A stretch of DNA of 64,000 bases from Streptomyces sp. GSL17-111 (GTDB lineage Bacteria > Actinomycetota > Actinomycetes > Streptomycetales > Streptomycetaceae): NCBI RefSeq assembly GCF_037911585.1, contig NZ_JBAJNS010000001.1, positions 1,363,001 to 1,427,000 of the forward strand, written 5' to 3'. The notes below the pieces were generated by a model. That model was given only the letters and a program-made list of their open reading frames with translations, did not search any database and had not been told where the DNA came from. Numbering within the stretch: position 1 is the first letter of the stretch; each line of letters begins with the position of its first letter. Of the stretch, positions 44,437-64,000 are shown piece by piece. Both the position numbers and the translations under genes were made by a program.

Positions 44437-45795
44437 TCAGCAGGAGGTGCCCCGGGAGGCGGGGCCGTCGGCCTGTGAGGTGGGCGGGGCGGCGCAGCAG
44501 CCGCCTCCGTCCGCCTCGGTGACCTCGGGGGCGTCGTAGAGGCCGGCGCCGCCGCACACGCCCGACTCGGGGAGGGTGAGCTCGACGCGCTCGGCGGATT
44601 CCCGGTCGCCCGCGAGAGCGGCGGCGATCGAGCGGACCTGCTCGTAGCCGGTGAGCGCGAGGAACGTGGGGGCGCGGCCGTAGGACTTCATCCCGACGAG
44701 GTGCACGTCCTGTTCGGGGTGGGACAGCTCGCGCACACCGTGCGGGTAGACGGTGCCGCAGGAGTGCACGTTCGGGTCGATGAGGGGCGCGAGCGCGACG
44801 GGCGCCTGGAGCCGGTCGTCCAGGCCGAGGCGGAGTTCGGTGAGGAAGGAGAGGTCGGGGCGGAAGCCGGTGAGGACGATGACCTCGTCCACGGGTTCCG
44901 TGCGGCGGCCGTCCTCGGCCACGAGCACCAGCCGCTCACCGTCCCGCTCGATCGCCTCGGTGCGGAAGCCGGTGACGGCGTCGGCGTGCCCGGCCTCGAC
45001 GGCGGCCTTGGCCCGCAGGCCGAGGGCGCCACGGGCGGGGAGCTGGTCGGCCTCGCCGCCGCCGAAGGTGTCGGTGCCGATGCCACGGCGCAGCACCCAC
45101 ACGGCATGGGTGCCCGGCTCGGCGGCCGCGAGGTCGGCGAGCTGGGCGAGGGCCGTGAAGGCGGACGCGCCGGTGCCGACGACGGCGACCCGCTTTCCGG
45201 CGTACCGGACGCGCACGGCCGGGTCGTTCAGGTCGGGCACCCGGTAGGCGAGGCGGGCGGACGCCGCGCGCTCCCCCAGGGCCGGAAGGCCGTTGCCGCC
45301 CAACGGGTTCGGCGTGGTCCACGTGCCGGAGGCGTCGAGGACCGCACGGGCGAGGAGCCGCTCCTCCCGGCCGTCGTGGGTGGTGAGCTGGACGGTGAAC
45401 GGCTGCCCGGCCCGGTCGGCGTCCACGACGCGGTCCCGCCCGGCCCGGGCGACGCCCGTGACGGTGGCGCCGTAGCGCACGCGGGCACCGAGGACGTCGG
45501 CTAGGGGCTGGAGGTACTGCTCGGCCCAGTCGGCCCCCGAGGGGTACGCGGCGCCGTCCGGCCGGACCCAGCCGGTGGGCGCCAGCAGCTTCTCGGCAGC
45601 CGGGTCGACGACCTCCGACCAGGGGGAGAACAGGCGTACGTGACCCCACTCCCGCACCGCCGCGCCGGCCTGCGGGCCGGCCTCCAGCACCAGCGGCTCG
45701 ATGCCGCGCTCCAGCAGGCGCGCGGCCCCGGCCAGGCCGACGGGACCGGCCCCGATCACGACGACGGGCAGTTCGGAGGGGGTGGACACGTTCAC
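44437..45795 (-). CDS. FAD-dependent monooxygenase-like protein with Cys-rich tail (arsenic-associated)
   Basis: 452 residues from GTG 45795 (GGAG five bases upstream; the longer TTG start would lie inside an operator). It has an FAD-binding GAGPVGLAGAARLLERGIEPLVLE, a second dinucleotide site VAVVGTGASAFTALA and LTGFRPDLSFL. The last 45 residues carry CGGAGLYDAP, GGGCCAAP and a terminal Cys. This is the same architecture as the protein at 48585, to which it is closely similar. Family members near ars genes (ArsO-like) are proposed to oxidise arsenicals. Substrate is inferred only. Confidence 0.8.
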   Translation of the reverse strand: MNVSTPSELPVVVIGAGPVGLAGAARLLERGIEPLVLEAGPQAGAAVREWGHVRLFSPWSEVVDPAAEKLLAPTGWVRPDGAAYPSGADWAEQYLQPLADVLGARVRYGATVTGVARAGRDRVVDADRAGQPFTVQLTTHDGREERLLARAVLDASGTWTTPNPLGGNGLPALGERAASARLAYRVPDLNDPAVRVRYAGKRVAVVGTGASAFTALAQLADLAAAEPGTHAVWVLRRGIGTDTFGGGEADQLPARGALGLRAKAAVEAGHADAVTGFRTEAIERDGERLVLVAEDGRRTEPVDEVIVLTGFRPDLSFLTELRLGLDDRLQAPVALAPLIDPNVHSCGTVYPHGVRELSHPEQDVHLVGMKSYGRAPTFLALTGYEQVRSIAAALAGDRESAERVELTLPESGVCGGAGLYDAPEVTEADGGGCCAAPPTSQADGPASRGTSC

Positions 45796-45811
45796 GACGA
45801 CTCCCGTTGTT

Positions 45812-45825
45812 TTGACGTTGGTCAA
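45812..45825. promoter_or_regulatory. TTGAC-N4-GTCAA operator candidate
   Basis: A perfect 5-bp inverted repeat with a 4-base spacer just upstream of the minus-strand flavoprotein start. The same motif and spacing recur before the paralogous gene (48486-48499), which suggests one regulator controls both. Confidence 0.6.
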
Positions 45826-45850
45826 TGTCTTGCGCCACCAGCATCACACC

Positions 45851-45888
45851 TGATTCGATGAACGTCAACATTGACAAGCATCGAATCA
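45851..45888. promoter_or_regulatory. Nested co-centred palindromes before the second flavoprotein
   Basis: An outer repeat TGATTCGATG/CATCGAATCA (10 bp, 18 apart) and an inner GTCAA-CA-TTGAC share one centre at 45869.5. They lie in the divergent promoter region and end 10 bases before the ATG at 45898. This looks like an ArsR-type operator. Confidence 0.6.
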
Positions 45889-45897
45889 GAGGTATCC

Positions 45898-46971
45898 ATG
45901 AAGCAGGTGGACGTCGCGGTGATCGGCGGCGGGCAGTCCGGGCTCGCCGCAGCGCGGGCCGTACTCCGGCACGGGCTGACGCCCGTCGTGCTGGAAGCAT
46001 CCGACCGCCCCGGAGGCTCGTGGCCGCGCTACTACGACAGCCTCACGCTGTTCTCCCCCGCCCGGTACAGCGCCTTGCCCGGTCTGCCGTTCGGCGGCGA
46101 CGGTGATCGCTACCCGCACCGGGACGAGGTGGTCGACTACCTCGTGCGCTACGCCGACCAGCTCTCGGTGGACCTCCGCACCCGCACGCGGGTCGTGGAC
46201 GTCCGCAGCGCCGCGGGCGGCTTCGCTCTGCACACCGCCACCGGTGACGTGATCCGTGCGGCCGGACTCGTCGCGGCCACCGGCGCCTTCGGGAACCCGG
46301 CGACGCCCTCGCCTCCCGGACGGAACGGCTTCACCGGCGAAGTGCTGCACGTGGCCGACTACCGCAGCCCCACGAGGTTCAGCGGCAAGCGGGTGGTGGT
46401 GGTCGGCGGCGGCAACTCCGCGGTTCAGGTGGGCACTGAACTCGCGGAGGTGGCGACCGTCTCGCTGGCCACCCGTGCCCCGCTCCGCTTCGTGGACCAG
46501 CGGCCCGGCGGCAGGGACCTCCACCACTGGCTGACCACCACGGGCTTCGACCAGCTGCCACCGCAGTGGCTGATCCACTACGTCAGCGGCACCCTCGTCC
46601 TGGACAGCGGGATCCACCGACAGGCCGTCGCGTCCGGCCGCCCGGACCGGCGTCCGATGTTCACCGCGCTCGACGGGGACGCGGTGGTATGGGCGGACGG
46701 CACGCGCGAGCGGGTCGACGTCGTGCTCCTGGCCACGGGATACCGACCCGACGTCGGCTACCTCGAAGGGCTCGGCGCCCTGGACGCCGACGGGGCACCC
46801 CTGCACAGCGGCGGGCTGTCCCTGACGCACCCCGGACTCGTCCATCTCGGGCTGGAGTTCCAGCGTTCGTTCGCGTCCAACACCCTGCGCGGTGTCGCCG
46901 GGGACGCGGACCACGTCATTCCACCGCTGGTCGCCCACGTCCGCGGAGCCCCGGCGGCCGCCGGGCTGTGA
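45898..46971 (+). CDS. Flavin-containing monooxygenase-like protein (ArsO-like)
   Basis: 357 residues. FAD site AVIGGGQSGLAAARAVLRHGLTPVVLE, NADP site VVVVGGGNSAVQVGTEL, and the LATGYRP motif, as in class B flavin monooxygenases. FSPARYSALPGLPF is shared with the minus-strand protein at 47010. In actinobacterial ars operons such proteins are named ArsO. It is divergent from the 44437 gene with shared operators between. Substrate unknown. Confidence 0.82.
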   Translation: MKQVDVAVIGGGQSGLAAARAVLRHGLTPVVLEASDRPGGSWPRYYDSLTLFSPARYSALPGLPFGGDGDRYPHRDEVVDYLVRYADQLSVDLRTRTRVVDVRSAAGGFALHTATGDVIRAAGLVAATGAFGNPATPSPPGRNGFTGEVLHVADYRSPTRFSGKRVVVVGGGNSAVQVGTELAEVATVSLATRAPLRFVDQRPGGRDLHHWLTTTGFDQLPPQWLIHYVSGTLVLDSGIHRQAVASGRPDRRPMFTALDGDAVVWADGTRERVDVVLLATGYRPDVGYLEGLGALDADGAPLHSGGLSLTHPGLVHLGLEFQRSFASNTLRGVAGDADHVIPPLVAHVRGAPAAAGL

Positions 46972-47009
46972 CAGTCGCGCCGGCCGCCCCTCGCGGACCG
47001 TCGGCCTCG

Positions 47010-48071
47010 TCAGGCGAGCAGTTGCGCGACCTCGCGGGCCACGTCGCGGGCGGGGCGGCCGACGCCGATGAGGGTGGCGGAGGCGGGCCCCGTCCAGTCC
47101 CCGTAGCCGAGCAGGTGCAGGCGCAGCTCGCCGACGGCGCGTGTGCCATGGGTGGCCGGTCGCCCCCCGGGGCCGCGCAGACCGAGGGGAGCGAGGTGGG
47201 AGAGGGCGGGGCGGAAGCCGGTGCACCAGATCACCGCATCGACTCGGGCGGTCGTACCGTCGGGCCACCGGACGCCTTCGGCCTCCATGCGCTGGAACAT
47301 CGGTTGGGCCTTCAGGCGACCGCTGTCCCGGGCCGCACGGACGGGGGGAACGGCGACGATGTCGCCCAAGGACGCGACACCACCGGTATCGCCGCGCCCC
47401 TCGTCCAACGCGCGGCGGCGCGCGGTCGCGGCGTCGAAGAGGGCACGGCCGTCGATGTCGTCGGCGAGGAGTCGGGGCGGGCGCTGGGTCACCCAGGTCA
47501 GGTCCACCGCAGGGTCCAGGGCGAGATCTGCGGCGATCTGTGCTCCGGAGTTGCCTCCGCCGACGACGAGCACGCGCTGTCCGGCGAAATCGCTCGGACA
47601 GCGGTAGCCGACGGTGTGCGACTGGCGCCCCTGGAAGACGCCGCTGCCAGGGGCCGCGGGTATGAAGGGGCGCCACCAGGTCCCGGTCGCGGAGATGACG
47701 GTGCGGGCCGACCAGTCTCCCTGGTCCGTCTCCACGCGCAGCCGGGGGCCGTCCCGGTCCACCGCTCGCACCCGAACCGGGCGGTGGACCGGGAGAGAGT
47801 AGTGGCGCTCGTAGTCCGTCAGGTACGTCACCACGTGCTCGGCGTCCGGGTACTCCTCGCCCGGTTGGGCCGGCATCAGGCGTCCGGGCAACGAGGAGAA
47901 GGCCGCCGGCGAGAACAGCCGCAGGGAGTCCCAGCCGAACTGCCACGCCCCGCCCGGGGCGTTCTGCGCATCGAGGATGACGAAGTCGAGTTCCGCACGG
48001 CGGAGGTGGTATCCGGCGGCCAGTCCTGCCTGGCCGCCGCCGATCACCAGCACGTCGGTCGCGTTGATCAC
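47010..48071 (-). CDS. Flavin-containing monooxygenase-like protein (ArsO-like)
   Basis: 353 residues from ATG 48071. FAD site VLVIGGGQAGLAAGYHLRRAELDFVIL, WDSLRLFSPAAFSSLPGRLMP, NADP site VLVVGGGNSGAQIAADLAL and WCTGFRPALSHL. The ATG overlaps the stop of the upstream arsR remnant by four bases (ATGA), so the pair was once an arsR-monooxygenase operon. It is a paralogue of the 45898 protein and convergent with it. Confidence 0.82.
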   Translation of the reverse strand: MINATDVLVIGGGQAGLAAGYHLRRAELDFVILDAQNAPGGAWQFGWDSLRLFSPAAFSSLPGRLMPAQPGEEYPDAEHVVTYLTDYERHYSLPVHRPVRVRAVDRDGPRLRVETDQGDWSARTVISATGTWWRPFIPAAPGSGVFQGRQSHTVGYRCPSDFAGQRVLVVGGGNSGAQIAADLALDPAVDLTWVTQRPPRLLADDIDGRALFDAATARRRALDEGRGDTGGVASLGDIVAVPPVRAARDSGRLKAQPMFQRMEAEGVRWPDGTTARVDAVIWCTGFRPALSHLAPLGLRGPGGRPATHGTRAVGELRLHLLGYGDWTGPASATLIGVGRPARDVAREVAQLLA

Positions 48072-48485: not shown

Positions 48486-48499
48486 TTGACGCCCGTCAA
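48486..48499. promoter_or_regulatory. TTGAC-N4-GTCAA operator candidate
   Basis: Same half-sites and spacing as 45812-45825, here about 85 bases upstream of the second Cys-tailed flavoprotein, in an AT-rich patch. A wider ATCTTGA/TCAAGAT repeat overlaps it. Confidence 0.6.
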
Positions 48500-48584
48500 A
48501 TCAAGATGCAGGATTCCTCATGCGGCCGCCGCCGAGATCGTCGGCCACCCCGTCCGCCACCGCACGCACGAAGAGAGGCACGCC

Positions 48585-49988
48585 ATGAGTCCTCATCAGC
48601 TCCCTGTCGTCATCGTGGGAGCTGGGCCCGTCGGCCTGGCCGCAGCCGCTCACCTGATCGAACGGGGCATCGAACCCCTGGTCCTCGAGTCCGGGCCGAC
48701 GGCGGGCACCGCCGTCCGCGAGTGGGGTCATGTCCGGCTCTTCTCCACCTGGGCCGAAGTCGTCGACCCGGTCGCCGAGAAGTTGCTGGCCCCCGCCGGC
48801 TGGTCCGTTCCGGCTCCGCAGACCTACCCCAGCGGATCGGACTGGGCCGAGCAGTACCTTCAGCCCTTGGCGGATGTCCTGGGTGAGAAGGTGCGCTACG
48901 GCCACACCGTCACGGGTGTCTCCCGGCGAGGACGCGACCGGGTGGTCGATGCCGAGCGTGAGGAACAGCCCTTCGTCGTCCACGTGCAGCGTGGCGACGG
49001 CGACCGTGAGCGATTCCTGGCCCGCGCCGTCATCGACGCGTCGGGAACCTGGTCCACTCCCGGTCCGGCCGGCGGCAGCGGGCTGCCCGCCCTGGGCGAG
49101 GACGTCGCATCCGAACGGATCAGCTACCGCGTTCCCGACCTCGCACGGCCTGAGGTCCGCGCCCGGTACGCGGGCAGGCGCACGGCCGTCATCGGCTCCG
49201 GCGCCTCGGCCTTCACCGCTCTGGCCATGCTCGCCGACCTCGCGCAGAGCCCGGAAGGGCACGGCACGCACGCCGTATGGGTCCTCCGCCGAGGCATGTC
49301 GGACTCCACCTTCGGCGGCGGCACGGCCGACCAACTGCCCGCCCGTGGGGCGTTGGGCCTGGCCGCCAAGTCGGCCGTCGACAGCGGCCACGCGGAACCG
49401 GTCACCGGGTTCCGCGTCGAGGCGGTGGAGCGGGGTTCCGGCGGACACCTCGTCCTCGTCGGCGAGGACGGGCGGCGCGTGGGGCCGGTGGACGAGGCGG
49501 TCGTGCTCACCGGCTTCCGTCCCGACGTGTCCTTCCTGGAGGAGGTCCGTCTCCGCCTCGACGAACGGTTGCAGGCCCCGACGGAACTGGCACCGCTGAT
49601 CGACCCCAACCAGCACTCCTGCGGCACCGTCTACCCCCACGGACACCGCGAGCTGTCGCACCCGGAACAGGGCCTCTTCCTGGCCGGGATGAAGTCCTAC
49701 GGCCGGGCACCGACCTTCCTCGCGCTCACCGGCTACGAACAGGTCCGCTCGATCGCCGCGGCCCTGGCCGGAGACCTCGCCTCGGCCGACCGCGTCGAAC
49801 TCGTCCTCCCGGAGACCGGTGTGTGCGGAGGCGCCGGCCTCTTCGACACCGTCGAGACCGACCACGGTGCCGGCGAGTGCTGCACCGGACCGGAGTCCGG
49901 GGCCTCCGGTGCCACCGCCCGCGAAGCCGGCGTGGCTCCGGACTCCGCGCCGGGCGCGGAACAGTCGGGTGGCTGCTGCGGCTCATGA
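48585..49988 (+). CDS. FAD-dependent monooxygenase-like protein with Cys-Cys tail (arsenic-associated)
   Basis: 467 residues from ATG 48585 (GAGAGG upstream). It is a close paralogue of the 44437 protein: VVIVGAGPVGLAAAAHLIERG, REWGHVRLFSTWAEVVDP, TAVIGSGASAFTAL, LTGFRPDVSFLEE and GMKSYGRAPTFLALTGYEQVRS. The C-terminal tail has CGGAGLF, GECCTG and ends GGCCGS. Vicinal cysteines can bind As(III), so the tail may load substrate or sense arsenite. It is translationally coupled to the downstream MFS exporter. Confidence 0.82.
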   Translation: MSPHQLPVVIVGAGPVGLAAAAHLIERGIEPLVLESGPTAGTAVREWGHVRLFSTWAEVVDPVAEKLLAPAGWSVPAPQTYPSGSDWAEQYLQPLADVLGEKVRYGHTVTGVSRRGRDRVVDAEREEQPFVVHVQRGDGDRERFLARAVIDASGTWSTPGPAGGSGLPALGEDVASERISYRVPDLARPEVRARYAGRRTAVIGSGASAFTALAMLADLAQSPEGHGTHAVWVLRRGMSDSTFGGGTADQLPARGALGLAAKSAVDSGHAEPVTGFRVEAVERGSGGHLVLVGEDGRRVGPVDEAVVLTGFRPDVSFLEEVRLRLDERLQAPTELAPLIDPNQHSCGTVYPHGHRELSHPEQGLFLAGMKSYGRAPTFLALTGYEQVRSIAAALAGDLASADRVELVLPETGVCGGAGLFDTVETDHGAGECCTGPESGASGATAREAGVAPDSAPGAEQSGGCCGS

Positions 49989-51196
49989 CGGCCTCGACCA
50001 GCGAGGGGGCCGTGAGCGGTCAGGACCGCTCACGGCCCCGCGCCGTGCTCCCCGCGCTCTGCCTGACCCAGGTGATCAGTTGGGGGGCCGTCTACTACGC
50101 CTTCCCGGTCCTCAACCCCACGATCGTCGCCGACACCGGTTGGAGCGCCGGCGCGACGAGCGCCGGGTTCTCCCTCGGGCTCCTGGTCTCGGCCTTGGTC
50201 GGCATCCGTGTCGGGCGCGTGATCGACCACCACGGACCTCGCACGATCATGACCGGCGGATCCGCCGTCGGAGCTGTCAGCCTCGCGGTGGTGTCCCGCG
50301 CCCCCAACCTGGTCGTCTTCACCCTCGGCTGGCTGCTGGCCGGGGTCGCGATGGCGGCGACCTTCTACCAGCCCGCCTTCGCCGCCATCACCCGCTGGTG
50401 GGCACCTGGCCACATCCGCCCGCTGACCGTGCTGACGCTCGCGGGCGGGCTCGCCTCCACGATCTTCGCGCCACTCACCGCGGCGCTCGCCGAGCACGTG
50501 TCCTGGCGGGCGACCTACCTCATTCTCGCCGGAATCGTCGCAGCCGTGACCGTGCCCACTCATTTCACAGCCCTGCGCGCACCCTGGCCGCCGCCGCTCC
50601 CCCGGGAGCCGCACCATGCGGTCGGAGCGACGAGGGCGGCGCTCAGCCGCCCGTTCCGCATGCTGGCACTGTCCTTGACCTTGTCAGCCCTGGCCACCTC
50701 CGCCGTCGTCATCGCCCTGGTCCCGCTCTTCCTTGAGCGCGGCTACACCACCGCGCAAGCGGCTTGGGCCCTGGGACTGGGTGGCGCCGGCCAGACGATC
50801 GGCCGGACGTTGTACGCCACGCTGGCCAGACGCCTTGGAGCCGTGGCCCGGATGACCGTGCTGATCTCCCTCAGCGGCGCCGCGACCCTCGCGTTGTCGG
50901 TGACCCCGGGGCCGTACCCCGTGCTGATCGCCCTGGCCGTGACCGCGGGGATGATCCGCGGCAACCTGACCCTGCTGCAAGCCACGGCGGTCACGGACCG
51001 CTGGGGCACTCGGGACTACGGTCGGCTCTCGGGCCTCCTGGCCGCCCCCACCACGACGGCGGCCGCCCTGGCCCCCTTCGTCGGAGCGGTACTGGTCGCC
51101 CCCCTGGGCGGGTACGCCCCGATGTTCGCCCTCCTCGCCGGGTGTTCCTTCCTCGCTGCCGCCAGTTCCTTGGGTACCCGGTCCGGGAGTGGGTGA
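49985..51196 (+). CDS. MFS transporter coupled to the arsenic-associated flavoprotein
   Basis: 403 residues with about 12 hydrophobic segments. ATG 49985 overlaps the flavoprotein stop by four bases. A loop of the type GIRVGRVIDHHGPRTIMTGG is the MFS motif A. Context suggests it exports the flavoprotein's product or an arsenical, in the way ArsJ-type MFS proteins export organoarsenicals, but no sequence feature fixes the substrate. A longer frame reaching back to 49277 is a shadow of the flavoprotein gene. Confidence 0.82.
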   Translation: MTASTSEGAVSGQDRSRPRAVLPALCLTQVISWGAVYYAFPVLNPTIVADTGWSAGATSAGFSLGLLVSALVGIRVGRVIDHHGPRTIMTGGSAVGAVSLAVVSRAPNLVVFTLGWLLAGVAMAATFYQPAFAAITRWWAPGHIRPLTVLTLAGGLASTIFAPLTAALAEHVSWRATYLILAGIVAAVTVPTHFTALRAPWPPPLPREPHHAVGATRAALSRPFRMLALSLTLSALATSAVVIALVPLFLERGYTTAQAAWALGLGGAGQTIGRTLYATLARRLGAVARMTVLISLSGAATLALSVTPGPYPVLIALAVTAGMIRGNLTLLQATAVTDRWGTRDYGRLSGLLAAPTTTAAALAPFVGAVLVAPLGGYAPMFALLAGCSFLAAASSLGTRSGSG

Positions 51197-51396: not shown

Positions 51397-51816
51397 ATGC
51401 GACCAAGCGCAATGGGCAAGGCCTCCACCATTCGGCCGCTCCCCCAACGCGATCAGGCGCGGGAACTCGCCCCCATGCTTCGAGCCATGGCCGACGAAAC
51501 CCGCCTGACGCTGCTGTTGCTGCTCGCAATCGACTCCCGCACCGTCAAGGAGCTGCATCAGTTGACCGGGCTCAGCAGGACGCTGATCAGCCACCACCTC
51601 GCTCCACTGCGGGAGCAGAGACTCGTGACGGTACTTCCGCGAGGCCGCAGCAACGTCTACGCGCTCTGCTGCTCGAGCCTCAGGGAACCGGCGCGCCTCT
51701 TGGCCGCACTGACCTCGACCCCGTCGGACCCCGCGGCATTCGCCATGGAGTCCGACGACCCCGACCCCGGCACCGAGAGCACAAGGCCGTCGCTGCGGAC
51801 CGGTGCACACCCCTAG
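51397..51816 (+). CDS. ArsR/SmtB-family regulator with Cys-Cys motif
   Basis: 139 residues. RELAPMLRAMADETRLTLLLLL and TVKELHQLTGLSRTLISHHLAPLREQRLVTVL give the winged helix. Vicinal Cys91-Cys92 (YALCCSSL) sit at the wing end. The canonical ELCVCDL site is missing. It is a close paralogue of the 60089 regulator, which has the same Cys pair. Likely represses its own gene and neighbours until arsenite or an organoarsenical binds. Confidence 0.88.
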   Translation: MRPSAMGKASTIRPLPQRDQARELAPMLRAMADETRLTLLLLLAIDSRTVKELHQLTGLSRTLISHHLAPLREQRLVTVLPRGRSNVYALCCSSLREPARLLAALTSTPSDPAAFAMESDDPDPGTESTRPSLRTGAHP

Positions 51817-52175: not shown

Positions 52176-52183
52176 CGAGGCGG

Positions 52184-53406: not shown

Positions 53407-53414
53407 GCGTCCTG

Positions 53415-53792
53415 CTAGTCCTGGCCGCGAAGCAGGAGGGCGAGCACCGCGAGGGCGCCGGGCGCGCTGCGGTAGTAGACCCAGGTGCCCCTTCTCTCCG
53501 AGGTGAGCAGCCCTGCTTCTCTCAGCTTCTTCAAATGGTGACTGACCGTAGGCTGGGAAACTCCGACATCTGATATGTCGCACACGCACACCTCACCGTG
53601 AGGATGAGAAGCCACACGAGAGAAAAGCCGAAGGCGAATCGGGTCGGACAACGCTTTGAACATCGCCGCTGCTCTTTCCGCGCCCGCTTCCGAGATGGGT
53701 TGCGACGCGAGTGGGGCGCAGCAGGACACCACCGCATCCGACCAAGCCTTCGACGGCTTTTCGCTCGGCTCTTCGAGCCCGGCATTCAGCAT
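53415..53792 (-). CDS. arsR: ArsR arsenite-responsive repressor with canonical CxC site
   Basis: 125 residues from ATG 53792. [23 protein letters not shown] leads into [42 protein letters not shown], in which Cys69 and Cys71 form the alpha-3 metalloid site known from ArsR. A second pair, Cys24-Cys25 (VVSCCAPL), lies in the N-terminal arm as in many actinobacterial ArsR. It is the most credible direct As(III) sensor here. It lies downstream of the acyl-CoA synthetase on the same strand and ends at the trxB break point. Confidence 0.92.
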
Positions 53793-53880
53793 GAATACAT
53801 GTTTGCACCGATGAGTGGTCCTGCCAAGTAGCACCCAGGGGCCCGACGCCACGTGGCAAGTCCGAGGCACACACTCCCGG

Positions 53881-55959: not shown

Positions 55960-56436
55960 TCAGCACAGAGGTGATGTGGCCTCGATCCGGGACGTGTCGT
56001 TGTCGCAGGATGCCAACCAGACGAAGCCATGCGGCTCCAACTCGCAGACGGGTTCACCCCGCGAGTTGTGCAGCGTCCGCGTCTCCCCGCACAGGAACCG
56101 CAGCCCGAGCCCCGGCCGACGCAACCCGGCCGGCAGCGTGAAGCGGCTCTTGCAGGCGGCCACGTTGTGCACCGCCAGAACTCGGCAGCCACCGTCCGTG
56201 CCGGACCTCACCGCCGCCCACAGGCCGTCGCCCAGAGCGATCGCGCGGAACTCGGCGTCAGCGGCGAAGACCGGTGCGACGGCCGGGTGGCAGAGCACGT
56301 TGCCCGTATCCGTGGCGGGGGCGCCGGAGGCGAACGAGCACAGCACGTCGAGGAGCCGTTGAGGCACGTGTTGGGACTGCCGGGTGACCGGGGCTACGTG
56401 GAACGAGCGCGATGCCGAGGTCGTTGTCGCGTTCAC
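55960..56436 (-). CDS. Orphan beta-sandwich domain resembling a GH13 C-terminal domain
   Basis: 158 residues from GTG 56436, which overlaps the iPGM-like stop by four bases (GTGA). The segment FRAIALGDGLWAAVRS, CRVLAVHNV, RFTLPAGLRRPG, LCGETRT and LEPHGFVWLAS resembles the last domain of sucrose-phosphorylase-type GH13 enzymes. The catalytic barrel is absent. It is either a relic of a fused gene or a recruited small domain; the tight coupling argues for continued expression. The call is tentative. Confidence 0.5.
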   Translation of the reverse strand: MNATTTSASRSFHVAPVTRQSQHVPQRLLDVLCSFASGAPATDTGNVLCHPAVAPVFAADAEFRAIALGDGLWAAVRSGTDGGCRVLAVHNVAACKSRFTLPAGLRRPGLGLRFLCGETRTLHNSRGEPVCELEPHGFVWLASCDNDTSRIEATSPLC

Positions 56437-57974
56437 AGCAGAGGGCTTCCTTTCATGGCTGCGCCGGGCTCACGGCCCAGCAACTTCAGTACGGTGGGCG
56501 CCACATCCGCCAGGGAACCGCCCTCGGCCAGGCCCACGCCCGCGAGCTGTTCCGCTCCCCCCTTGAGAACAACGGGTACCGGGTTGGTGGTGTGTCCCCC
56601 GTACGGCAGGAGTTCGCCGTCCGGGCCGCGTTGGAACATCTGCTCCGCGTTGCCGTGATCACCCACCGCCAGCATCCAGCGCCCCTGCTCCGCTACCGCG
56701 GCGGCGATACGGGCGACCGCCGCGTCGGTGTGCTCGGCGGCGCGCACCGTCGCCTCCAGATCACCGGTGTGACCGACGACATCGATGTTGGCGAGGTTGG
56801 CCACCACCAGGGCGACGTCGCTCCGGGCCGCAGCGGCGCACACCGCGTCAACGACGTCGGAGACGCCCATCTGAGGCCGACTCCGGTAGTCGGGAGCTTG
56901 GCCCGTGTCGACCCGGACGTGCTCCTCCGTGACTCGCGAGCGGGCGTCACGGCCGTTCAGGTAGTACGTGACGTGCTCGAACTTCTCCCTCTCCGCGATG
57001 CGTACCGAGAGCAGGCGCGCGCGCTCCAGTTCATCGGCGAGGCCCCCGGAGGCGTCGGCCCTGCGGGTCAGGGACTCGATCTCGGTGCGGGTGTCGTACT
57101 GGGCGAGGCTCGCCAGCGAGACCTTCCTGCCGCTCCGCTCCAGATGGTCGGCCAAGCCGTCCGCCAACTGCTGCACGCGATCGCTACGGAAGTTGAAGAA
57201 GAGGACCGCGTCCTGATCCGCCATCGTCACGGCCGGTCGGCCTCCGGTCCCCGCCAGAACGCTGGGCGGTACCCACTCGTCACCTCCGTCGGAGTGCACC
57301 GCGGCCTCCTGGAGGTGGTCCCTCAGGCGCCCGTGCCCGTCGGCCATGGCCAGGACCGCGGCCTCGGTGAGGTCGTTCCTGCCGGACTTGTCCATGGCGT
57401 AGCCACGGCCGATCACGGTCGCCAGACGCCCGGTTCCCGCATCCGCCATCAGCCGCTCGGCTCGCGCGAGGTAGCGCGTCGCGGTTCCGTCCGCCACGTC
57501 CCGTCCGTCGGTGATGGCATGAACCCAGACCTGCGGCACGTCGTGTTCGGCCGCGACGGCGAGAAGGACCCCCAGGTGGTCGAGATCGGAGTGGATCTGC
57601 CCGTCGGAGCAGAGGCCGATGAGGTGGAGTGCCCGCCCCTCCGACGCCGCCGCGGCACACATCGCGTTCAAGCGCGGATGCGCGCGCATGGCCCCGGAAT
57701 CGATCTGTTGCCGGACCAGCAGGCTGTCATAGGGCAGTGCTCGGCCGGCGCCGATGACCAAGTGACCCGTCTCGGAGTTTCCGACGGTGCCGGGGAGCAG
57801 GCCGACCGCTTCCCCGGACGCCTGGAGCAGCCCGGCGGGGCAGGTCGCCCGTATCCCGTCCAGAAAGGGAGTGCGCGCGAGAGCGAGGGCGTTCCCCGGC
57901 CCGGGCGCGGCGTGCCCCCATCCGTCCAGGACGAGAAGCACACCCGGGGAACCCGAGGCGCCGAGGCCCGTCAT
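56433..57974 (-). CDS. Phosphoglycerate-mutase (iPGM) paralogue, candidate arsenoenolpyruvate/arsonopyruvate mutase
   Basis: 513 residues, the length of cofactor-independent phosphoglycerate mutase. Metal ligands appear kept: Asp17, Ser67 (VGNSETGH), Asp398 and His402 (NIDVVGHTG), Asp439-His440 (GDHGNAEQM), His461. ITDGRDV and NFRSDR are also present. Changes are seen: [11 protein letters not shown] where iPGM has GRYYAMDR (Arg to Lys), and [12 protein letters not shown] for SDGGVHSH. ATGA overlap with the AroA-like gene means coupled translation. In arseno-organic clusters this enzyme is proposed to move arsenic from oxygen to carbon. Ordinary glycolytic iPGM is less likely given context. 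Confidence 0.85.
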
Positions 57975-59293
57975 GCCGTACTCGCCTTCTCAGGGTGGAG
58001 CCGGTCGAGGACCCGCCAGAAGCCGGGGAACGACTTGGCGACGCAGCCCGGGTCCTTGATGGTGACCCCCTCGGTGCGCAGCCCCGCGACCGCGAAGCTC
58101 ATGGCGATGCGATGGTCGTCGTAGGTGTCGATGGCCGCACCGTGCGGAACGCCGCCGACGATGTGCATGGCGTCAGCGGACTCGTGAACCGTGATGCCCA
58201 TGCGGCGCAGTTCGTTCGTGACCGCGGCGATGCGGTCGCACTCCTTGACACGCAGGGAGCCGATGTTGGTGATGCGCGTATCTCCTTCGGCGAAGGCCGC
58301 GACGACCGCCAGGGTGGGGACGACGTCCGGCATGGCCTCCATGTCGATGTCGATGCCGCGCAGCGGCCCCCCTTTCAGGGTGACGGAACCGCCGTTCACC
58401 TGGGTACGGCATCCCATCCGCGCCAGTACCTCGACCAGGCCGACGTCTCCCTGCCGGGAGTCGGCCCCGATCCCGGGAACCGACACCTCTCCCTCGGTGA
58501 CGGCGGCGGCGGCGAGCAGATAGGACATTCCGGAAGCGTCCGGTTCCACGTCCACACGGCCGCCGCGTGGCTGCTGTCCGCTCGGGACGGAGAAGCTCCG
58601 GTAGCCGTCACGTTCGACCCGCACGCCCATCTCGGCCAGCGCCGCGATGGTCATCTCGACGTAGGGCTGGGAGATCAGGTCGTCCACGATCTCGATCTCG
58701 GTGTCGCTCGCGGCGCGGACCGAGTTGATCAGCAGGCTCGAAGTGAACTGGCTGGATACGGAGCCGCTGATCCGCGTCCGGCCGCCGTGGAACGTGCCGC
58801 CGGTGACGCGTACGGGCGGCGACCCGTTCGCACGCACCGCGACAGCCTCCACGCCCAGCATCGGCAGGGCGGACAGCAGGTCGCCCATGGGCCGCTCCTG
58901 CATGCGGGCGTTACCCGTGATGGTGGTCGTACCTTCGGCGTGGCCCGCCATGGCGATCAGGAAACGGAGAGGCGTGCCGGCGCCTCCCATGTACACGTCC
59001 TCCGCCGGCGCGCGCATCGCTTCACCGGTCGGTTCCACCAGGATGCTGGAGCGCTCCTCGTCGATGGTGGTGCGCACGTGTCCGAACGCGGCGACGGCGT
59101 GCGCGAAGTACCGGGTGTCGTCCGAGAGCAGGGCTCCCTCGATCAGGGTCTCCCGACCGCTGAGGGCGGCGATGGCCAGGTAGCGGTTCGTGTAGCTCTT
59201 CGAGCCCGGTGGCGTGGCCTCGGCGCTGATGCTTCCGGAGGGCACGACCGTCACCGCGTCCTGCTCAAGACGCGGGTCCGATGTTGCGCTCAT
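57971..59293 (-). CDS. EPSP-synthase (AroA) paralogue, candidate arsenoenolpyruvate synthase
   Basis: 440 residues from ATG 59293 (GGGAG upstream). EPSP-synthase catalytic residues are present: PGSKSYTNR (Lys32, Arg37), [25 protein letters not shown] (Asp323), VKECDR (Lys350, Glu351, Arg354), DDHRIAM and CVAKSFP (Lys420). The PEP-pocket loop reads GGAGTPLR, with Gly where AroA usually has GNAGT. No other shikimate gene is nearby. It overlaps the iPGM-like gene, as expected for consecutive steps in the proposed arsenate + PEP pathway. Function is inferred from this context. Confidence 0.88.
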
Positions 59294-59340
59294 CGTTTCT
59301 CCCAACTCTCTTCGACCTGCCGGGGCCGCCCGTACGTCAG

Positions 59341-59508
59341 TCACCGCTCGGTGCAGGAACCGTCCGACAGGATCACCTGTCGAGAGCCGAGGAGACCGGC
59401 CTTGCGGGCCACGACCGGCCCGCAGGGAACGGACACCGTGAATCCTGTTCCGTGCGCCCACAGTTGGCGCTCTTCTTGCTCTGCCACGTTGCGCGGTCTG
59501 GACGTTGT
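59341..59508 (-). CDS. Possible 55-residue protein before the AroA-like gene
   Basis: ATG 59508 to TGA 59341, 47 bases ahead of the AroA-like start on the same strand. The sequence includes [19 protein letters not shown] and ends SDGSCTER. About three quarters of third positions are G or C, compatible with coding but not decisive. No clear RBS is seen. No family recognised. Confidence 0.25.
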
Positions 59509-60033
59509 CATCACCGGAACCCACCTGGGGAGCACGAGTGGTCGACCGCTTACCGACTGAGCCCTTCCCGACCCATCAGCAATCATTAATGGGTTTGCGG
59601 ACGGCCGAGTAGTCGAGAGTTGGCCATTTGACGGAAGCCCGTGGGTGACGCGATCAGTGACAACCCAAGGTGACGGGCGCGCCGGTGACGCCGGGTCGAC
59701 CAGGGCGTCACCCGCACCCAGGATCGCGTGCCGGCCAACGGTCGAGCCCCCTGAGCGCAGCGGGAGAACCCGACCCGGCCAGCCGCACCCCATACGCTGC
59801 CGCCTGGCCGATATGCTCTCGACAGCCCGCCGTACCCTCTCGCGGGCGCCGACGGACCCAGCCCCGGCCGGGGCCCCGCCCGCCACCCCTCGCACCACCC
59901 CGCAACGGGTCGTCACGGAACGTGACGCCGGAGCGCGCGGGGAACGCGCCTCCCTTCCAGCAGCCGCTACCTCGTGGCTGAATTGGCACCCAACCCTGCC
60001 GTTCCACCACCGCGAACATCCACTATTGACTAG
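59509..60033. other. Non-coding gap between the AroA-like gene and arsR
   Basis: No convincing gene. It holds ACCCAT-N12-ATGGGT (59571-59594) in an AT-rich patch that may be the promoter of the AroA-like operon, and a 9-bp perfect hairpin at 59684-59712. Frames that cross it have no recognisable motif, and one runs through the operator at 60034. Confidence 0.5.
59684..59712. terminator. Hairpin in the AroA-arsR gap
   Basis: GGTGACGCC pairs with GGCGTCACC (9 bp) around an 11-base loop. It could terminate an upstream transcript or act in a leader. Confidence 0.4.
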
Positions 60034-60057: not shown

Positions 60058-60088
60058 AGGCTGCGACGCCGCTCCTGAGGAGACCTCC

Positions 60089-60475
60089 ATGCCGCCACGA
60101 CCGAGGAGCCGCGCGAGCGCCGACGCGTCGGCCCGTCACCCGCGGGAACGTGACCAGGCGCTGGGCCTGGCCCCCATCCTCCGGGCCATAGCGGACGAGA
60201 ACCGACTTCTGCTGATCATGCTTCTGGGGCAGAGGGCCCGAACGGTGAAGGAGCTCCAGGAGGCGACAGGCCTGAGCCAGCCGCTGGTCAGTCACCACCT
60301 GACGAGCCTGCGCAAACAAAGCCTGGTCACCGTGACCCAGTGCGGCCGGAGCCACGAGTACTCGCTCTGCTGCGACACGCTCGCCGAGTCGGTGCGCCTC
60401 CTGCTCGACCTGACCGCCGGCAACGTCACCCGCACCTCGGCGGGAGCACCAGAGGAAACGCGCGATAGCGGATGA
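60089..60475 (+). CDS. ArsR/SmtB-family regulator with Cys-Cys motif
   Basis: 128 residues. GLAPILRAIADENRLLLIMLL and TVKELQEATGLSQPLVSHHLTSLRKQSLVTVTQCGRSHEYSLCC (in outline) form the winged helix. Cys94-Cys95 match Cys91-Cys92 of the 51397 paralogue, and Cys85 is an extra candidate ligand. It lies between the divergent AroA-like operon and the PKS, so it may control both. Confidence 0.88.
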   Translation: MPPRPRSRASADASARHPRERDQALGLAPILRAIADENRLLLIMLLGQRARTVKELQEATGLSQPLVSHHLTSLRKQSLVTVTQCGRSHEYSLCCDTLAESVRLLLDLTAGNVTRTSAGAPEETRDSG

Positions 60476-60889
60476 TGAGCCACTTCTCAACCACCGGGGA
60501 CACCACGACTCCAGGTGACGTTGCTCACAGGGCACCTTGTTGTCACCCACTTCGACGGATGTCACTCTAGACACGTATCTATGTAGGCACGCCGTCCCTC
60601 TTCACCGGGACGCCCCTTTCCGTACGACTTCCGTACCGGCTGCGCCCTTCCCCTCCCGCGCCTACGGAAGTGTGCACCTCCCAGTCGACCGGACGCGTCC
60701 CGCATCCGGTCAAGCGACTGGACCGCGCTTCCGTCCGTGTCACGACAGACGGAGCCACAGCCAACGGCCTCTCGTGTAGCAGCGAGTCCTCTCGCACCAA
60801 CGGCTCCGTCTCGTCAGCAGGCAGGCACCCACCGCGCCCCCGCAAGGGCCGGAGGGACCGCTGTGGCCCTCGACGGAGAGGAATCATCA
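60476..60889 (+). other. Non-coding leader upstream of the PKS
   Basis: 414 bases without a convincing gene. It holds TAGA-CACGTA-TCTA (60568-60581) and TGTCAC twice, at 60541 and 60560, close to two helical turns apart, a layout that could suit an activator. It probably contains the PKS promoter, but no consensus can be assigned. Confidence 0.5.
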
Positions 60890-63800
60890 GTGCGAGCCAG
60901 CGCAGCACCCCACGAGACCGCCGATCGCAGGGGCGGTGCCCCGCAACCCATCGCCGTCGTCGGGATGGCCGGCCGGTTCCCCGGTGCGGCCGATGTCGAC
61001 GCGCTGTGGGAGTCGTTGTGCCGGGGCGAGGACGCGATCCGTGAGGTCCCCGCCGAACGACACCACCTCGCGGACCTGTCCTCCCGAACCTCCGGCAGGT
61101 GGGGTGGGTTCCTTGAGCGGGTCGACGCCTTCGACGCGGAGCACTTCGGCATATCACCCCGTGAGGCCGAACGGATGGACCCGCAACAACGACTGCTCCT
61201 GGAGACCGTGCAGGAGGCGATGGACGACGCGGGGTTCTCCGCCGACCGCCTCGCCGGGTCGTGCACCGGCACGTTCATCGGGCAGCTGGGGAACGACTAC
61301 TGGAGTCTGCTGCGCCGCGGTGCCGCGCCCGCCGACATCCACCAGATGACCGGATCGGCCTCACGCGCCGTCACTTCGGGTCGACTGGCCCATGTCTGGG
61401 ACCTGCGCGGTCCCAGCCTCACCGTCGACACGGCCGCGTCGTCCTCGCTGGTGGCCGTGCACCTCGCGCTGCAGAGCCTGTGGTCCGGCGAGTGCACGAC
61501 CGCCGTCGCGGGAGGTGTCAATCTCGTACTCATTCCCGATGACACGGTCATATTCTCCGAGGCCGGAATGCTGGCCGCCGATGGGCGCTGCAAGTTCGGT
61601 GACTCCTCCGCTGACGGGTTCGTGCGGAGCGACGGGGTGGGCGCCGTCATCCTCAAACCGCTGCAGCAGGCGCTGACCGACGGGGACCGGGTTCGTGCCG
61701 TGGTGCTGGGCAGCGCCGCGGGCAACGACGGACAGTCGAGCGGGTACCTCGTCACCCCCGGGGTCGACGGGCAGGAGCAGGTGCTGCGGCGGGCCTACCG
61801 GCACGCCGGCGTCGCACCCCGGGACATCGACTACGTGGAGGCGCACGGTACCGGCACCGGCGTGGGTGACCCGGTGGAGCTGGAAGCGCTGGCCTCGGTA
61901 CTGGGTGTCGACCGGCCGGTCGACACCCCATGTCTGGTGGGCTCCGTCAAGAGCAATATCGGACACACGGAGGCAGCAGCGGGGATCGCGGGATTCATCA
62001 AGGCGGTGCTGTGCCTGGAGCACGGAGAGGTACCCGCCAGTCTGCACGTCGACGAACCGAGCCCGGCCGTCGCGGGGGACCGCTCGCCGGTCCGCGTCCC
62101 GCGGGAGAGAACTCCTCTGCACCCCCAAGGCCGCCCCGCGCACGCCGCGGTCAGCAGCTTCGGCTTCTCCGGTACCAACGCCCATGTCGTGCTGCGGGCC
62201 GTCGACGAGGAGGAGGCACCCCCTCCCACTCCGGAGTCGGACACCGGCCCCAGGATGCTCCTGCTCTCCGCTGCCAACCGTGAGCGGCTGCACGACCTGG
62301 CCGTCTCCTGGACCCGCTATCTGGCTCCCGGCGGGAAGGGACGCGGGCACGTGTGGGGGGCCGTGGCCCGCAGTGCCGCGGTCCGCAGAGAGCTCGGACC
62401 CTGTCGGCTGGCCCTGCCCGCCGCCTCGCACGAGGACGCGCTGGTGCAGCTGCGAAGCTTCGTCGGTGGTGAGCATCCGGTCGGTGGTTCCTTCACCGAG
62501 GGCGCGTCGCCACACGCTCCGCGCATCGCCTTCGTCTACCCGGGGCAGGGCAGCCAGTGGAGGGGCATGGGCCGACAGTTACTGTCCACCGAGCCGGTGT
62601 TCGCCGAAGCGATCGCCGCCTGCGACGCAGCCATCCGTGAAGAGGCGGGCTGGTCCCTGACGGACCTGCTGCGGACCGGTTCCGAGGACCGCCTCGCCGA
62701 GCCGGCCGTCGTCCAGCCCGCGTTGTGGGCGATGGAAGTGGGCCTGACGGCACTGTGGCGCCACTGGGGCGTGGAGCCGGATGTGGTGATCGGGCACAGC
62801 ATGGGCGAAGCCGCCGCGGCCCATGCGGCGGGCGCCCTGAGCCTGGCCGACTCCGCGGCCGTCATCTGCCGCCGCAGCGAACTCGCCGGGCGGCTGAGCG
62901 GGCAGGGCAGCATGGCGTGGGTGCGCCTGGGCGCCGAGGACGCGGCCAAGGCGCTGGTGGGCCACGAAGAACGGGTGTGGATCGCTGCCCGCAACAGTCC
63001 CGCCTCCACGCTGCTTTCCGGGGAACGAGAAGCTCTGGCCGAGATTCTGCGGAGTCTCGACCGGGACGGGACACCCAACCGGTGGGTGAACGTCGACTTC
63101 GCCTCCCACTGTCCGCAGATGGACACGGTTCGCGACGAACTGACCGAAGCCCTGCGGGAGGTCCGACCACGGACGGCTTCGGTACCGCTCCATTCCACCG
63201 CCCTGGGCGAAGTCGTCGACGGTTCCGGTATGGACGCCGGCTACTGGGCCCGCAACATCCGCGAGCCCGTCGACTTCCTCGGCGCCGTGACCGGCCAGAT
63301 CACGGACACCGACACCGTCTTCATCGAGATCAGCCCCCACCCCGTGCTGGTCCACAGCATCAGGGAGACCGCGCAGTCGCTGGGAAGGGAGGTCGCAGCG
63401 GTCCCCTCACTGCGCCGGGAGGAGGACGAGCTTCGGGCCCTGCTCACCTCACTGGCCGAGGTGAACACGCACGGCGTTTCCGTGCACTGGCCACACCTGT
63501 TCGACGACCATCGCTTCGTCCCCCTTCCGCCCACACCGTGGCGGCGTGTCTCCCATTGGCTACCCGCGCCGGAGGCCGGACGTCCGGCACAGCGGCCGGA
63601 CCACCGGCACATCGCCGGTCCGGGCGGGGACACGGCGGCGGGTACGTGGCTCGTTCTCGCCGACAGCGGCCCGCACGGGCGCACCCTGGTCAAGGAGCTG
63701 CGCGAACGGGGCCAGCGGGTGGTCGTGGCCACCGTCGCGACGACTCTCAAGCAGACCGGCCCGGACCGGTACCGGATGCACCCCGACCGTCCCGACCACA

Positions 63801-64000
63801 TGCGCACCGTGCTCCGCGACGTCGCGCAGCGGGGACCGTGCTCGGGCATCGTCCACCTGTGGGGACTGGACGCCGGCCTGCCGCAGGACGCCACGGTCAA
63901 GGAGCGCGAGCGCGCCCAGGGGCTGGGCCTGCGCAGTGTCTCCCACCTCCTCAGCACCCTGCACCACGTGCCCTTCCCGGCACCGCCACGCATCTGGCTG
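60890..64000 (+). CDS. Type I polyketide synthase, loading KS(Ala)-AT module, cut by the window
   Basis: GTG 60890 (GGAGAGG eight bases upstream); 1037 codons are seen and the frame is open at the edge. The ketosynthase spans about residues 18-440: Ala183 replaces the catalytic Cys (VDTAASSSLVAVH at 61424-61462), while His319 (EAHGTGT) and His359 (KSNIGHTEA) are kept. The acyltransferase follows with Ser637 (GHSMGE) and a FASH motif (residues 737-740), nearer to methylmalonyl-type YASH than malonyl HAFH. Residues 880-1037 look like the structural half of a ketoreductase. Loading-module status is inferred from the missing Cys. Confidence 0.93.
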   Translation, partial: MRASAAPHETADRRGGAPQPIAVVGMAGRFPGAADVDALWESLCRGEDAIREVPAERHHLADLSSRTSGRWGGFLERVDAFDAEHFGISPREAERMDPQQRLLLETVQEAMDDAGFSADRLAGSCTGTFIGQLGNDYWSLLRRGAAPADIHQMTGSASRAVTSGRLAHVWDLRGPSLTVDTAASSSLVAVHLALQSLWSGECTTAVAGGVNLVLIPDDTVIFSEAGMLAADGRCKFGDSSADGFVRSDGVGAVILKPLQQALTDGDRVRAVVLGSAAGNDGQSSGYLVTPGVDGQEQVLRRAYRHAGVAPRDIDYVEAHGTGTGVGDPVELEALASVLGVDRPVDTPCLVGSVKSNIGHTEAAAGIAGFIKAVLCLEHGEVPASLHVDEPSPAVAGDRSPVRVPRERTPLHPQGRPAHAAVSSFGFSGTNAHVVLRAVDEEEAPPPTPESDTGPRMLLLSAANRERLHDLAVSWTRYLAPGGKGRGHVWGAVARSAAVRRELGPCRLALPAASHEDALVQLRSFVGGEHPVGGSFTEGASPHAPRIAFVYPGQGSQWRGMGRQLLSTEPVFAEAIAACDAAIREEAGWSLTDLLRTGSEDRLAEPAVVQPALWAMEVGLTALWRHWGVEPDVVIGHSMGEAAAAHAAGALSLADSAAVICRRSELAGRLSGQGSMAWVRLGAEDAAKALVGHEERVWIAARNSPASTLLSGEREALAEILRSLDRDGTPNRWVNVDFASHCPQMDTVRDELTEALREVRPRTASVPLHSTALGEVVDGSGMDAGYWARNIREPVDFLGAVTGQITDTDTVFIEISPHPVLVHSIRETAQSLGREVAAVPSLRREEDELRALLTSLAEVNTHGVSVHWPHLFDDHRFVPLPPTPWRRVSHWLPAPEAGRPAQRPDHRHIAGPGGDTAAGTWLVLADSGPHGRTLVKELRERGQRVVVATVATTLKQTGPDRYRMHPDRPDHMRTVLRDVAQRGPCSGIVHLWGLDAGLPQDATVKERERAQGLGLRSVSHLLSTLHHVPFPAPPRIWL

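What the first reader, a model, noticed from the sequence alone, without database searches (positions are those of the whole stretch)
44437..64000. Putative arseno-organic biosynthetic island (AroA-like + iPGM-like + PKS + ars genes)
An EPSP-synthase paralogue overlaps a phosphoglycerate-mutase paralogue, next to an acyl-CoA synthetase, a type I PKS, three ArsR regulators, four flavin monooxygenases, an MFS exporter and Cys-Cys proteins. This set matches the arseno-organic (bisenarsan-type) clusters reported in S. lividans and S. coelicolor, where such paralogues are proposed to make a carbon-arsenic bond. The gene content here (Ala-type loading KS, GH13-like domain, tandem Cys-tailed flavoproteins) may define a distinct variant.
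Basis: partly seen in the sequence, partly recalled or inferred. Interest (0 to 1): 0.95.

Follow-up and report, generated by a model that had tools for sequence, protein, structure and literature searches.

The report
Stripped-down arsenic natural-product gene cluster
A Streptomyces-type bacterium carries a gene cluster that is predicted to bond arsenic to carbon, and because its chain-building enzyme lacks the catalytic cysteine and every reducing domain, it would likely cap the arsenic compound with a short acid instead of the long fatty chain made by known clusters of this kind.

Summary
Window 44437-64000 carries the AroA-like and iPGM-like pair, ArsR, ArsO, PKS and CoA-ligase genes; the contig past 64000 adds a KASIII-like acyltransferase, a phosphonopyruvate decarboxylase (BsnJ-like), SsuD-like, PhnS/V/U/T, ArsP, PstS/PstCA, ACR3 and ArsC genes. 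In trees the AroA-like and iPGM-like proteins group with cluster paralogues, not with housekeeping or canonical enzymes. So it is a bsnMN-type arsenic cluster, a published kind (bisenarsan). It is not a bisenarsan factory: the PKS is KS(Cys to Ala)-AT-psiKR-ACP without DH, ER or KR, in the window and two near genomes; 13 of 13 PKSs read from other bsn clusters keep Cys and span 1881-2485 aa. KS and AT are under purifying selection, and the neighbouring KASIII-like protein keeps the Cys-His-Asp triad of ChlB3. I infer a short-chain (most likely propionyl) ester of 2-hydroxyethylarsonic acid (2-HEA). Side finding: the small ORF after BsnN is a free-standing GH13-type C-terminal beta-sandwich, found in 39 of 52 bsnMN loci and fused to BsnN in Herbidospora and Kutzneria. 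Product, acyl donor and arsenic use are untested here.

The parts
44437..45825 (-). FAD-dependent oxidoreductase with Cys-rich tail
   Evidence: Pfam Pyr_redox_3; weak ArsO similarity, 55 bits against a cut-off of 425; tail read
45871..46971 (+). ArsO-like flavin monooxygenase
   Evidence: NF040505 238 bits, under its cut-off of 425
47010..48071 (-). ArsO flavin monooxygenase
   Evidence: NF040505 539 bits, over its cut-off of 425
48486..49988 (+). second Cys-tailed FAD oxidoreductase (likely start ~48585)
49985..51196 (+). MFS transporter, ArsK-like
   Evidence: MFS_1; NF033733 161 bits, under its cut-off of 400
51397..51816 (+). ArsR-family regulator
   Evidence: PF01022
52184..52948 (-). 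SDR, candidate arsonoacetaldehyde reductase
   Evidence: nearest NCBIfam YdfG, 161 bits, under its cut-off; relatives include sulfoacetaldehyde reductase 6ixj; relatives in 8 of 52 bsnMN loci, 7 of these with PPD
53415..53870 (-). ArsR-family regulator
   Evidence: PF01022
53881..55899 (-). short-chain acyl-CoA ligase, nearest to propionate--CoA ligase models
   Evidence: PRK10524 720 bits, under its cut-off of 955; best solved relative 5gxd, 800 bits; in 2 of 52 loci
55960..56436 (-). free-standing GH13 domain-C-like protein, candidate BsnN partner
56433..57974 (-). BsnN-like protein (iPGM family)
   Evidence: TIGR01307 397 bits over 331; tree
57971..59524 (-). BsnM-like protein (EPSP synthase family; likely start ~59293)
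   Evidence: TIGR01356 424 bits over 287; tree; motifs
60089..60475 (+). ArsR-family regulator, divergent from bsnMN
   Evidence: PF01022 and NF033788 over cut-off
60737..64000 (+). short type I PKS: KS(C to A)-AT-psiKR-ACP; cut by the window end, the gene runs on to 64423 on the contig (psiKR end and ACP lie past 64000); the rest of the island also lies past 64000, see the Full report section

Best explanation
The island is a bsnMN-type (bisenarsan-like) gene cluster that is predicted to turn arsenate into 2-hydroxyethylarsonic acid and would then likely esterify it with a short acyl group, since its PKS carries Ala in place of the ketosynthase cysteine and has no DH, ER or KR domain. Steps, all inferred from homology and from the S. 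lividans gene disruptions told in PMC12159101: BsnM moves enolpyruvate from EPSP to arsenate; BsnN, perhaps helped by the GH13-type beta-sandwich protein, rearranges arsenoenolpyruvate to arsonopyruvate (the C-As bond); the PPD gives arsonoacetaldehyde; the SDR reduces it to 2-HEA. The PKS AT loads (methyl)malonyl on its ACP, the KS-Ala domain should no longer condense and probably decarboxylates it, as KSQ and KSS loading modules do, and the KASIII-like Cys-His-Asp protein moves the propionyl (or acetyl) group to the 2-HEA hydroxyl. Shown here: gene content, phylogeny, motifs, missing domains, selection and synteny. Not shown: any activity or product.
For: Core trio BsnM, BsnN and PPD over NCBIfam cut-offs. 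BsnM and BsnN separate from housekeeping or canonical relatives; the own housekeeping AroA is elsewhere in the genome, 35% identical. bsnM-bsnN adjacent, match-to-match gaps of -3 to 39 nt, in 52 of 52 loci, two of them duplicates. No PEP-mutase match in the genome. PKS: Ala and no reducing domains in the window and two near genomes; Cys in 13 of 13 longer bsn PKSs. In a protein search the six hits with Ala are exactly the six of 1149-1197 aa among the 120 listed (capped, and the tool takes no candidate over 1.75 times the query). dN/dS 0.15-0.18 for KS and AT, 0.07-0.08 for KASIII. KASIII: nearest solved relatives include ChlB3, DpsC, CerJ; triad as in ChlB3. KASIII gene next to a PKS gene in 16 of 16 cases read, the window included, and PPD present in 18 of 18 KASIII loci. 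Ligase nearest to propionate--CoA ligase models and to 5gxd. SDR related to sulfoacetaldehyde reductase.
Against: No metabolite or expression data. KS-Ala is not the established decarboxylase residue (Gln, Ser), so decarboxylation is a guess. The ChlB3 paper says that relatives other than CerJ do Claisen condensation, so the triad alone does not prove ester formation. AT motif FASH is shared with the longer bsn PKSs but does not by itself fix methylmalonyl. The ligase motif WWQTETG does not tell acetate from C3 acids. The psiKR linker evolves faster (dN/dS 0.39-0.46). SsuD and PhnSTUV have no place in the proposed route; the SsuD is 71-78% identical to ordinary Streptomyces proteins. No S. lividans sequence was compared. 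Tree support is moderate: 94/74 for BsnM, 91 in a quick tree for BsnN, with long branches flagged in both.
Confidence: 0.55

Rival explanations
1. The KS-Ala module does not decarboxylate; AT and ACP present malonyl or methylmalonyl, and the KASIII-like enzyme transfers that diacid to 2-HEA, as CerJ does with malonyl and a sugar.
For: CerJ is among the nearest solved relatives and transfers malonyl to a sugar hydroxyl (PMC9573744 passages); KS histidines kept but Cys absent.
Against: KS under purifying selection suggests it still does something; the longer bsn PKSs pair a close KASIII with reducing domains.
Confidence: 0.2
2. The PKS is a relic; the cluster makes free 2-HEA or another arsonate and the PKS-KASIII pair no longer matters.
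For: Cys, DH, ER and KR absent; fast linker.
Against: Low dN/dS in KS, AT and KASIII; the Ala form is kept at 57-58% identity in Streptomyces capparidis and in an unnamed contig with AT and ACP motifs intact. Whether those two lie in bsn clusters was not seen.
Confidence: 0.15
3. The pathway makes phosphonates, not arsonates: phosphonopyruvate decarboxylase, AEP transporter and Pst genes work on phosphorus.
For: PPD and PhnSTUV families are named for phosphonates.
Against: No PEP-mutase match in the genome; ArsR, ArsO, ArsP, ACR3 and arsenate-reductase genes around it; S. lividans bsnM, bsnN and bsnJ are reported to be needed for an arsenical.
Confidence: 0.05
4. PhnSTUV and SsuD form an uptake-and-cleavage branch that imports organoarsonates and splits the C-As bond oxidatively, for self-protection or scavenging.
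For: They sit together beside PPD in the window genome and both near genomes; no second close SsuD in the genome; SsuD cleaves C-S bonds of sulfonates, which resemble arsonates (established knowledge).
Against: SsuD is close to ordinary Streptomyces alkanesulfonate monooxygenases; within 10-kb flanks SsuD is seen in 2 of 52 bsnMN loci, the two near genomes, and PhnS in 0 of 52 (in the near genomes PhnS lies just outside the flank; a 45% relative lies on another contig of the L052 genome).
Confidence: 0.1

Closest known systems
bsn cluster of Streptomyces lividans / S. coelicolor (bisenarsan), told in PMC12159101 (passages)
   Same: EPSP-synthase and phosphoglycerate-mutase paralogues, phosphonopyruvate decarboxylase, a PKS, arsenic resistance and regulation genes, no SAM-dependent enzyme found among the genes scanned
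   Different: PKS lacks the KS cysteine and DH, ER, KR, so 2,4,6-trimethyl-2-nonenoic acid cannot be expected; whether the CoA ligase, SsuD, PhnSTUV, ArsP and SDR are extra relative to S. lividans was not checked
bsn clusters with longer PKS (e.g. L015/L092 S. thermovulgaris, L048 Saccharomonospora saliphila)
   Same: bsnMN, PKS-KASIII pair, PPD
   Different: PKS 1881-2485 aa stop to stop with Cys KS; many of them also carry a molybdopterin oxidoreductase near bsnM
Nocardiopsis / Spongiactinospora bsnMN loci (L050, L051, L053, L054)
   Same: SDR, bsnMN, PPD, ArsP, ArsR
   Different: no close KASIII in the flanks; ABC-transporter genes judged PhnCDE-like by eye only; an amino-acid-kinase family gene in L050
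KSQ/KSS-AT-ACP loading modules of modular PKSs (PMC12843615 passages)
   Same: KS with the active Cys replaced, followed by AT and ACP
   Different: Ala instead of Gln or Ser; stands alone with no extender module beside it; similar over KS-AT (56-59% identity) to longer reducing PKSs of bsn clusters
KASIII-like enzymes ChlB3, CerJ, DpsC
   Same: sequence family; Cys-His-Asp triad as in ChlB3
   Different: acceptor would be 2-HEA, untested

Membership tests
bsnMN-type arseno-organic cluster | EPSP-synthase paralogue distinct from housekeeping AroA | tested here: met
bsnMN-type arseno-organic cluster | iPGM paralogue next to it, distinct from canonical iPGM | tested here: met
bsnMN-type arseno-organic cluster | phosphonopyruvate decarboxylase (BsnJ) | tested here: met
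   present in only 24 of 52 bsnMN loci within 10-kb flanks, so not universal in the wider group
bsnMN-type arseno-organic cluster | arsenic regulation and resistance genes | tested here: met
bsnMN-type arseno-organic cluster | no SAM-dependent enzymes | tested here: met
   no such family among the gene calls scanned between 43522 and 88124; small unlisted ORFs were not scanned
bsnMN-type arseno-organic cluster | arsenic-containing product | not testable with these tools
   needs LC-ICP-MS and HRMS
Bisenarsan (2,4,6-TMNA ester) cluster | chain-building reducing PKS | tested here: not met
   KS Cys to Ala; no DH, ER or KR
Bisenarsan (2,4,6-TMNA ester) cluster | synteny with the S. lividans sequence | not tested
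   no S. lividans or S. coelicolor locus among those returned
KSQ loading module | Gln at the KS active site | tested here: not met
   Ala
KASIII-like acyltransferase (ChlB3/CerJ type) | Cys-His-Asp triad instead of the FabH Cys-His-Asn set | tested here: met
   Cys113, His294, Asp299; a FabH-like protein of the genome (L137) has HQAN and GNTGAAS; ChlB3 residues from PMC9573744 passages
KASIII-like acyltransferase (ChlB3/CerJ type) | acyl transfer to a hydroxyl | not testable with these tools
   needs purified protein
PepM phosphonate cluster | PEP mutase | tested here: not met
   0 matches at E<=10 in the genome; 8 of 14 control genomes rang, none over the cut-off
GH13 C-terminal domain | domain-C beta-sandwich fold | tested here: met
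GH13 enzyme | catalytic barrel | tested here: not met
   158-aa protein; model has short helices and eight strands, no barrel-sized region

The most novel reading that the evidence does not exclude
An arsenic assembly line has been pared down from an iterative reducing PKS to a starter-only KS-Ala module that feeds a KASIII ester synthase, giving a propionyl ester of 2-hydroxyethylarsonic acid, a pro-drug-like 'mini-bisenarsan'; and the C-As-bond-forming mutase BsnN works with a captured glycoside-hydrolase C-terminal domain that is fused to it in some genera.
Probability: 0.35. Interest if true: 0.82.

Novelty: new variant of a known kind. Interest (0 to 1): 0.62.

Why it matters
How bsn clusters form the C-As bond without SAM, and how the acyl chain reaches 2-HEA, are open steps in the published route: the review passages that I read name no release enzyme and leave the reductase open. 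This island offers candidates for each: the KASIII-like protein for ester formation, the SDR for reduction, the beta-sandwich protein as a BsnN partner. Its short PKS is a natural experiment: if the KASIII is the ester synthase, it should still act where chain building is gone. It also predicts small, easily sought masses.

Tried and rejected
Rejected: housekeeping origin of the AroA-like and iPGM-like genes (trees); phosphonate pathway as the main reading (no PEP-mutase match); FabH-type condensation by the KASIII as the first choice (FabH His and Asn positions not kept); SsuD as a bsn-specific enzyme.

Led nowhere: P0124 search over 295 genus genomes used a threshold (1e-205) that even the own copy missed, so its empty answer says nothing. 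Relative placing of the beta-sandwich on BsnN in the fusion model: linker residues 511-532 under pLDDT 50, so not used. Alignment A3 misplaced the small-domain rows and was replaced by A4. A six-term paper search on KS active-site changes gave none.

Rows dropped: AroA tree, L012 as a duplicate of L106; L126 has a very long branch. BsnN tree, L059 left out, L080-L083 dropped as short matches, and 41 of the 71 rows collected were used. One search counts a gene as present at 45% identity and 20% of its length or more. Flanks of 10 kb or less cut genes at locus ends, so true presence may be higher than counted. 3 of 18 KASIII loci (L020, L028, L041) were not extended to read their PKS. L009/L055 and L010/L060 overlap as the same sequence, so 52 loci are 50 distinct.
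Full report
Setting. The window is bases 1363001-1427000 of contig 1 of a 6.0-Mb, 5-contig genome. I read on to window position 100000. The nearest listed relatives of its BsnN are in Streptomyces chumphonensis, two unnamed contigs and Streptomycetaceae bacterium MP113-05 (loci). Left of the island lie gcvT, glyA and serine dehydratase genes.

Gene content. Pfam and NCBIfam scans name the island in order: four flavoproteins including one over the ArsO cut-off, an ArsK-like MFS, ArsR, SDR, ArsR, CoA ligase, a small ORF, iPGM, AroA, ArsR, PKS (60737-64423, +). Past the window, in the same numbering: KASIII-like 64451-65488 (+); phosphonopyruvate decarboxylase 65430-66668 (+; TIGR03297 367 bits over 312.5); SsuD-like ~67339-68487 (+); PhnS, PhnV, PhnU, PhnT 68503-72665 (-; PhnS and PhnU over cut-offs, PhnV and PhnT under); ArsR 72991-73467 (+); ArsP_1 permease 73427-74344 (+); CTP-synthase C-terminal paralogue 74480-75196 (+); PstS 75911-76891 and PstC-PstA fusion 76895-78706 (+); ACR3 79597-80931 (-; 438 bits over 283); arsenate-reductase-type LMWP 81101-81514 (+; arsenate-reductase models under their cut-offs). 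The decarboxylase is the only one over the family cut-off in the genome. No PEP mutase was matched at E<=10; 8 of 14 control genomes rang at that threshold, none over the cut-off.

What is known. PMC12159101 (a review; passages read) tells that bsnM (EPSP synthase), bsnN (phosphoglycerate mutase) and bsnJ (phosphonopyruvate decarboxylase) are needed for bisenarsan in S. lividans, that 2-HEA feeding restores it in all three disruptants, that PKS genes (bsnPKS and bsnFB) give 2,4,6-trimethyl-2-nonenoic acid, and that bsnMN are widespread with varied neighbours. The 2016 paper and the 2020 PKS paper were not held. In the held library the word bisenarsan occurs in two papers, this review and an inorganic-chemistry paper.

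Core enzymes. In a careful tree, 31 cluster AroA-like rows and 16 housekeeping rows, including the window genome's own second AroA, each lie on one side of a branch (support 94/74; 90% of 200 bootstrap trees; long branches flagged). BsnM keeps the motifs around the residues that I recall as catalytic in EPSP synthase; the PEP loop reads GGAGTPLRF here and in most cluster rows shown, GNAGTPIR in a few, and mostly GNAGTVMRF or GLAGTVMRF in the housekeeping rows shown. A quick tree separates 22 BsnN rows from 19 canonical iPGMs (support 91). BsnN keeps GNSE-GH and the other metal-site motifs (site assignment recalled) but has Asp-Lys, invariant in 24 aligned BsnN rows, where canonical rows shown have Asp-Arg. 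bsnM and bsnN are adjacent in 52 of 52 loci (50 distinct). Over the family, 3 of 297 genomes, the own one included, hold a BsnN match at E<=1e-100.

The PKS. In the window, S. chumphonensis and MP113-05 the PKS is 1278 aa stop to stop, with DTAASSS where KS domains have DTACSSS, and no KR motif; in the window copy Pfam finds KS, AT and ACP only. The KS histidines, AT serine and ACP serine remain. I read the PKS next to the KASIII gene in 13 further bsn clusters (with the two near genomes, 15 of the 18 KASIII loci): all 13 have Cys and are 1881-2485 aa stop to stop. Of three of these that I scanned, all have KS, AT, DH, KR and ACP in Pfam; a clear ER is seen in L092 only. The short form keeps KS-AT, the structural KR-like subdomain and ACP. 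In a protein search, of 120 listed hits 76 have Cys, 31 Gln, 7 no match to my pattern and 6 Ala; those 6 are exactly the proteins of 1149-1197 aa, two of them only 57-58% identical to the window's (the tool's length rule leaves out PKSs over about 2150 aa). Pairwise dN/dS is 0.15-0.16 for KS, 0.18 for AT, 0.39-0.46 for the linker and 0.22-0.40 for ACP. So the Ala form looks old and kept. KSS-AT-ACP and KSQ-AT-ACP loading modules that decarboxylate are described in PMC12843615 (passages); by analogy the Ala form may decarboxylate, which is a guess.

The KASIII-like protein. Its best solved relatives are ChlB3, two entries called 3-oxoacyl-ACP synthase, DpsC and CerJ. PMC9573744 (passages) gives the ChlB3 triad Cys113-His296-Asp301, also found in CerJ; it says too that the relatives other than CerJ do Claisen condensation. 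Here Cys113-His294-Asp299 are kept, and a FabH-like protein of the same genome shows the different FabH set. The gene lies next to a PKS in 16 of 16 cases read, the window included (about 0.6 kb apart in L101), and PPD is present in 18 of 18 KASIII loci. In S. canus (L103) the match stops at residue 269 of 345, a frameshift or an error. I infer that it forms the ester. Whether it equals BsnFB could not be checked.

Other steps. The SDR is related to YdfG and to sulfoacetaldehyde reductase; relatives occur in 8 of 52 bsnMN loci, 7 of these with PPD, the eighth being a 5.2-kb contig. The CoA ligase is closest to 5gxd (800 bits; recalled to be an acryloyl-CoA ligase) and far from acetyl-CoA synthetases (448 bits), which fits a C3 acid. 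SsuD and PhnSTUV are conserved in the window genome and the two near genomes but unexplained; SsuD is ordinary by sequence.

Verdict. A well-supported member of the bsnMN arsenic clusters and a new variant of it: the chain-building PKS is reduced to a module that should not condense. The product proposal is a testable inference.

Noticed in passing
L016:6092-8611 and 26 other bsnMN loci: A molybdopterin oxidoreductase (840 aa in L016, with a Tat-like start by eye) is matched at E<=1e-50 in 27 of 52 loci, often just upstream of bsnM (Pfam); the window stretch has no match. Its role is unknown.
   Followed up: partly
L013:10001-11494: Herbidospora cretacea BsnN (P0018) keeps part of the linker of the fused form, but no beta-sandwich domain was found in L013.
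   Followed up: partly
52896-53573: A short thioredoxin-reductase-like N-terminus (about 62 residues match), probably a remnant; similar stretches lie in both near genomes.
   Followed up: partly
L135 (G000:C1:5264190-5265203): A second KASIII-like protein with the Cys-His-Asp motifs, 48% identical, elsewhere in the genome.
   Followed up: no
L050:17248-18120: Nocardiopsis bsnMN locus carries an amino-acid-kinase family gene beside ABC-transporter genes, perhaps a kinase for an arsonate or phosphonate product.
   Followed up: no
L090:7177-8243: PhnS of MP113-05 is split in two pieces; a frameshift or a sequencing error.
   Followed up: no
L006:2866-6771 (window numbering 82866-86774, beyond the window): A second Pst-type set (PstS, permease, ATPase) follows the arsenate-reductase-type gene; arsenate or phosphate uptake is open.
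   Followed up: no
L035:12025-13083: A PHO4-family phosphate transporter lies after bsnN and the small ORF, where many other bsnMN loci have PstS-PstCA.
   Followed up: no
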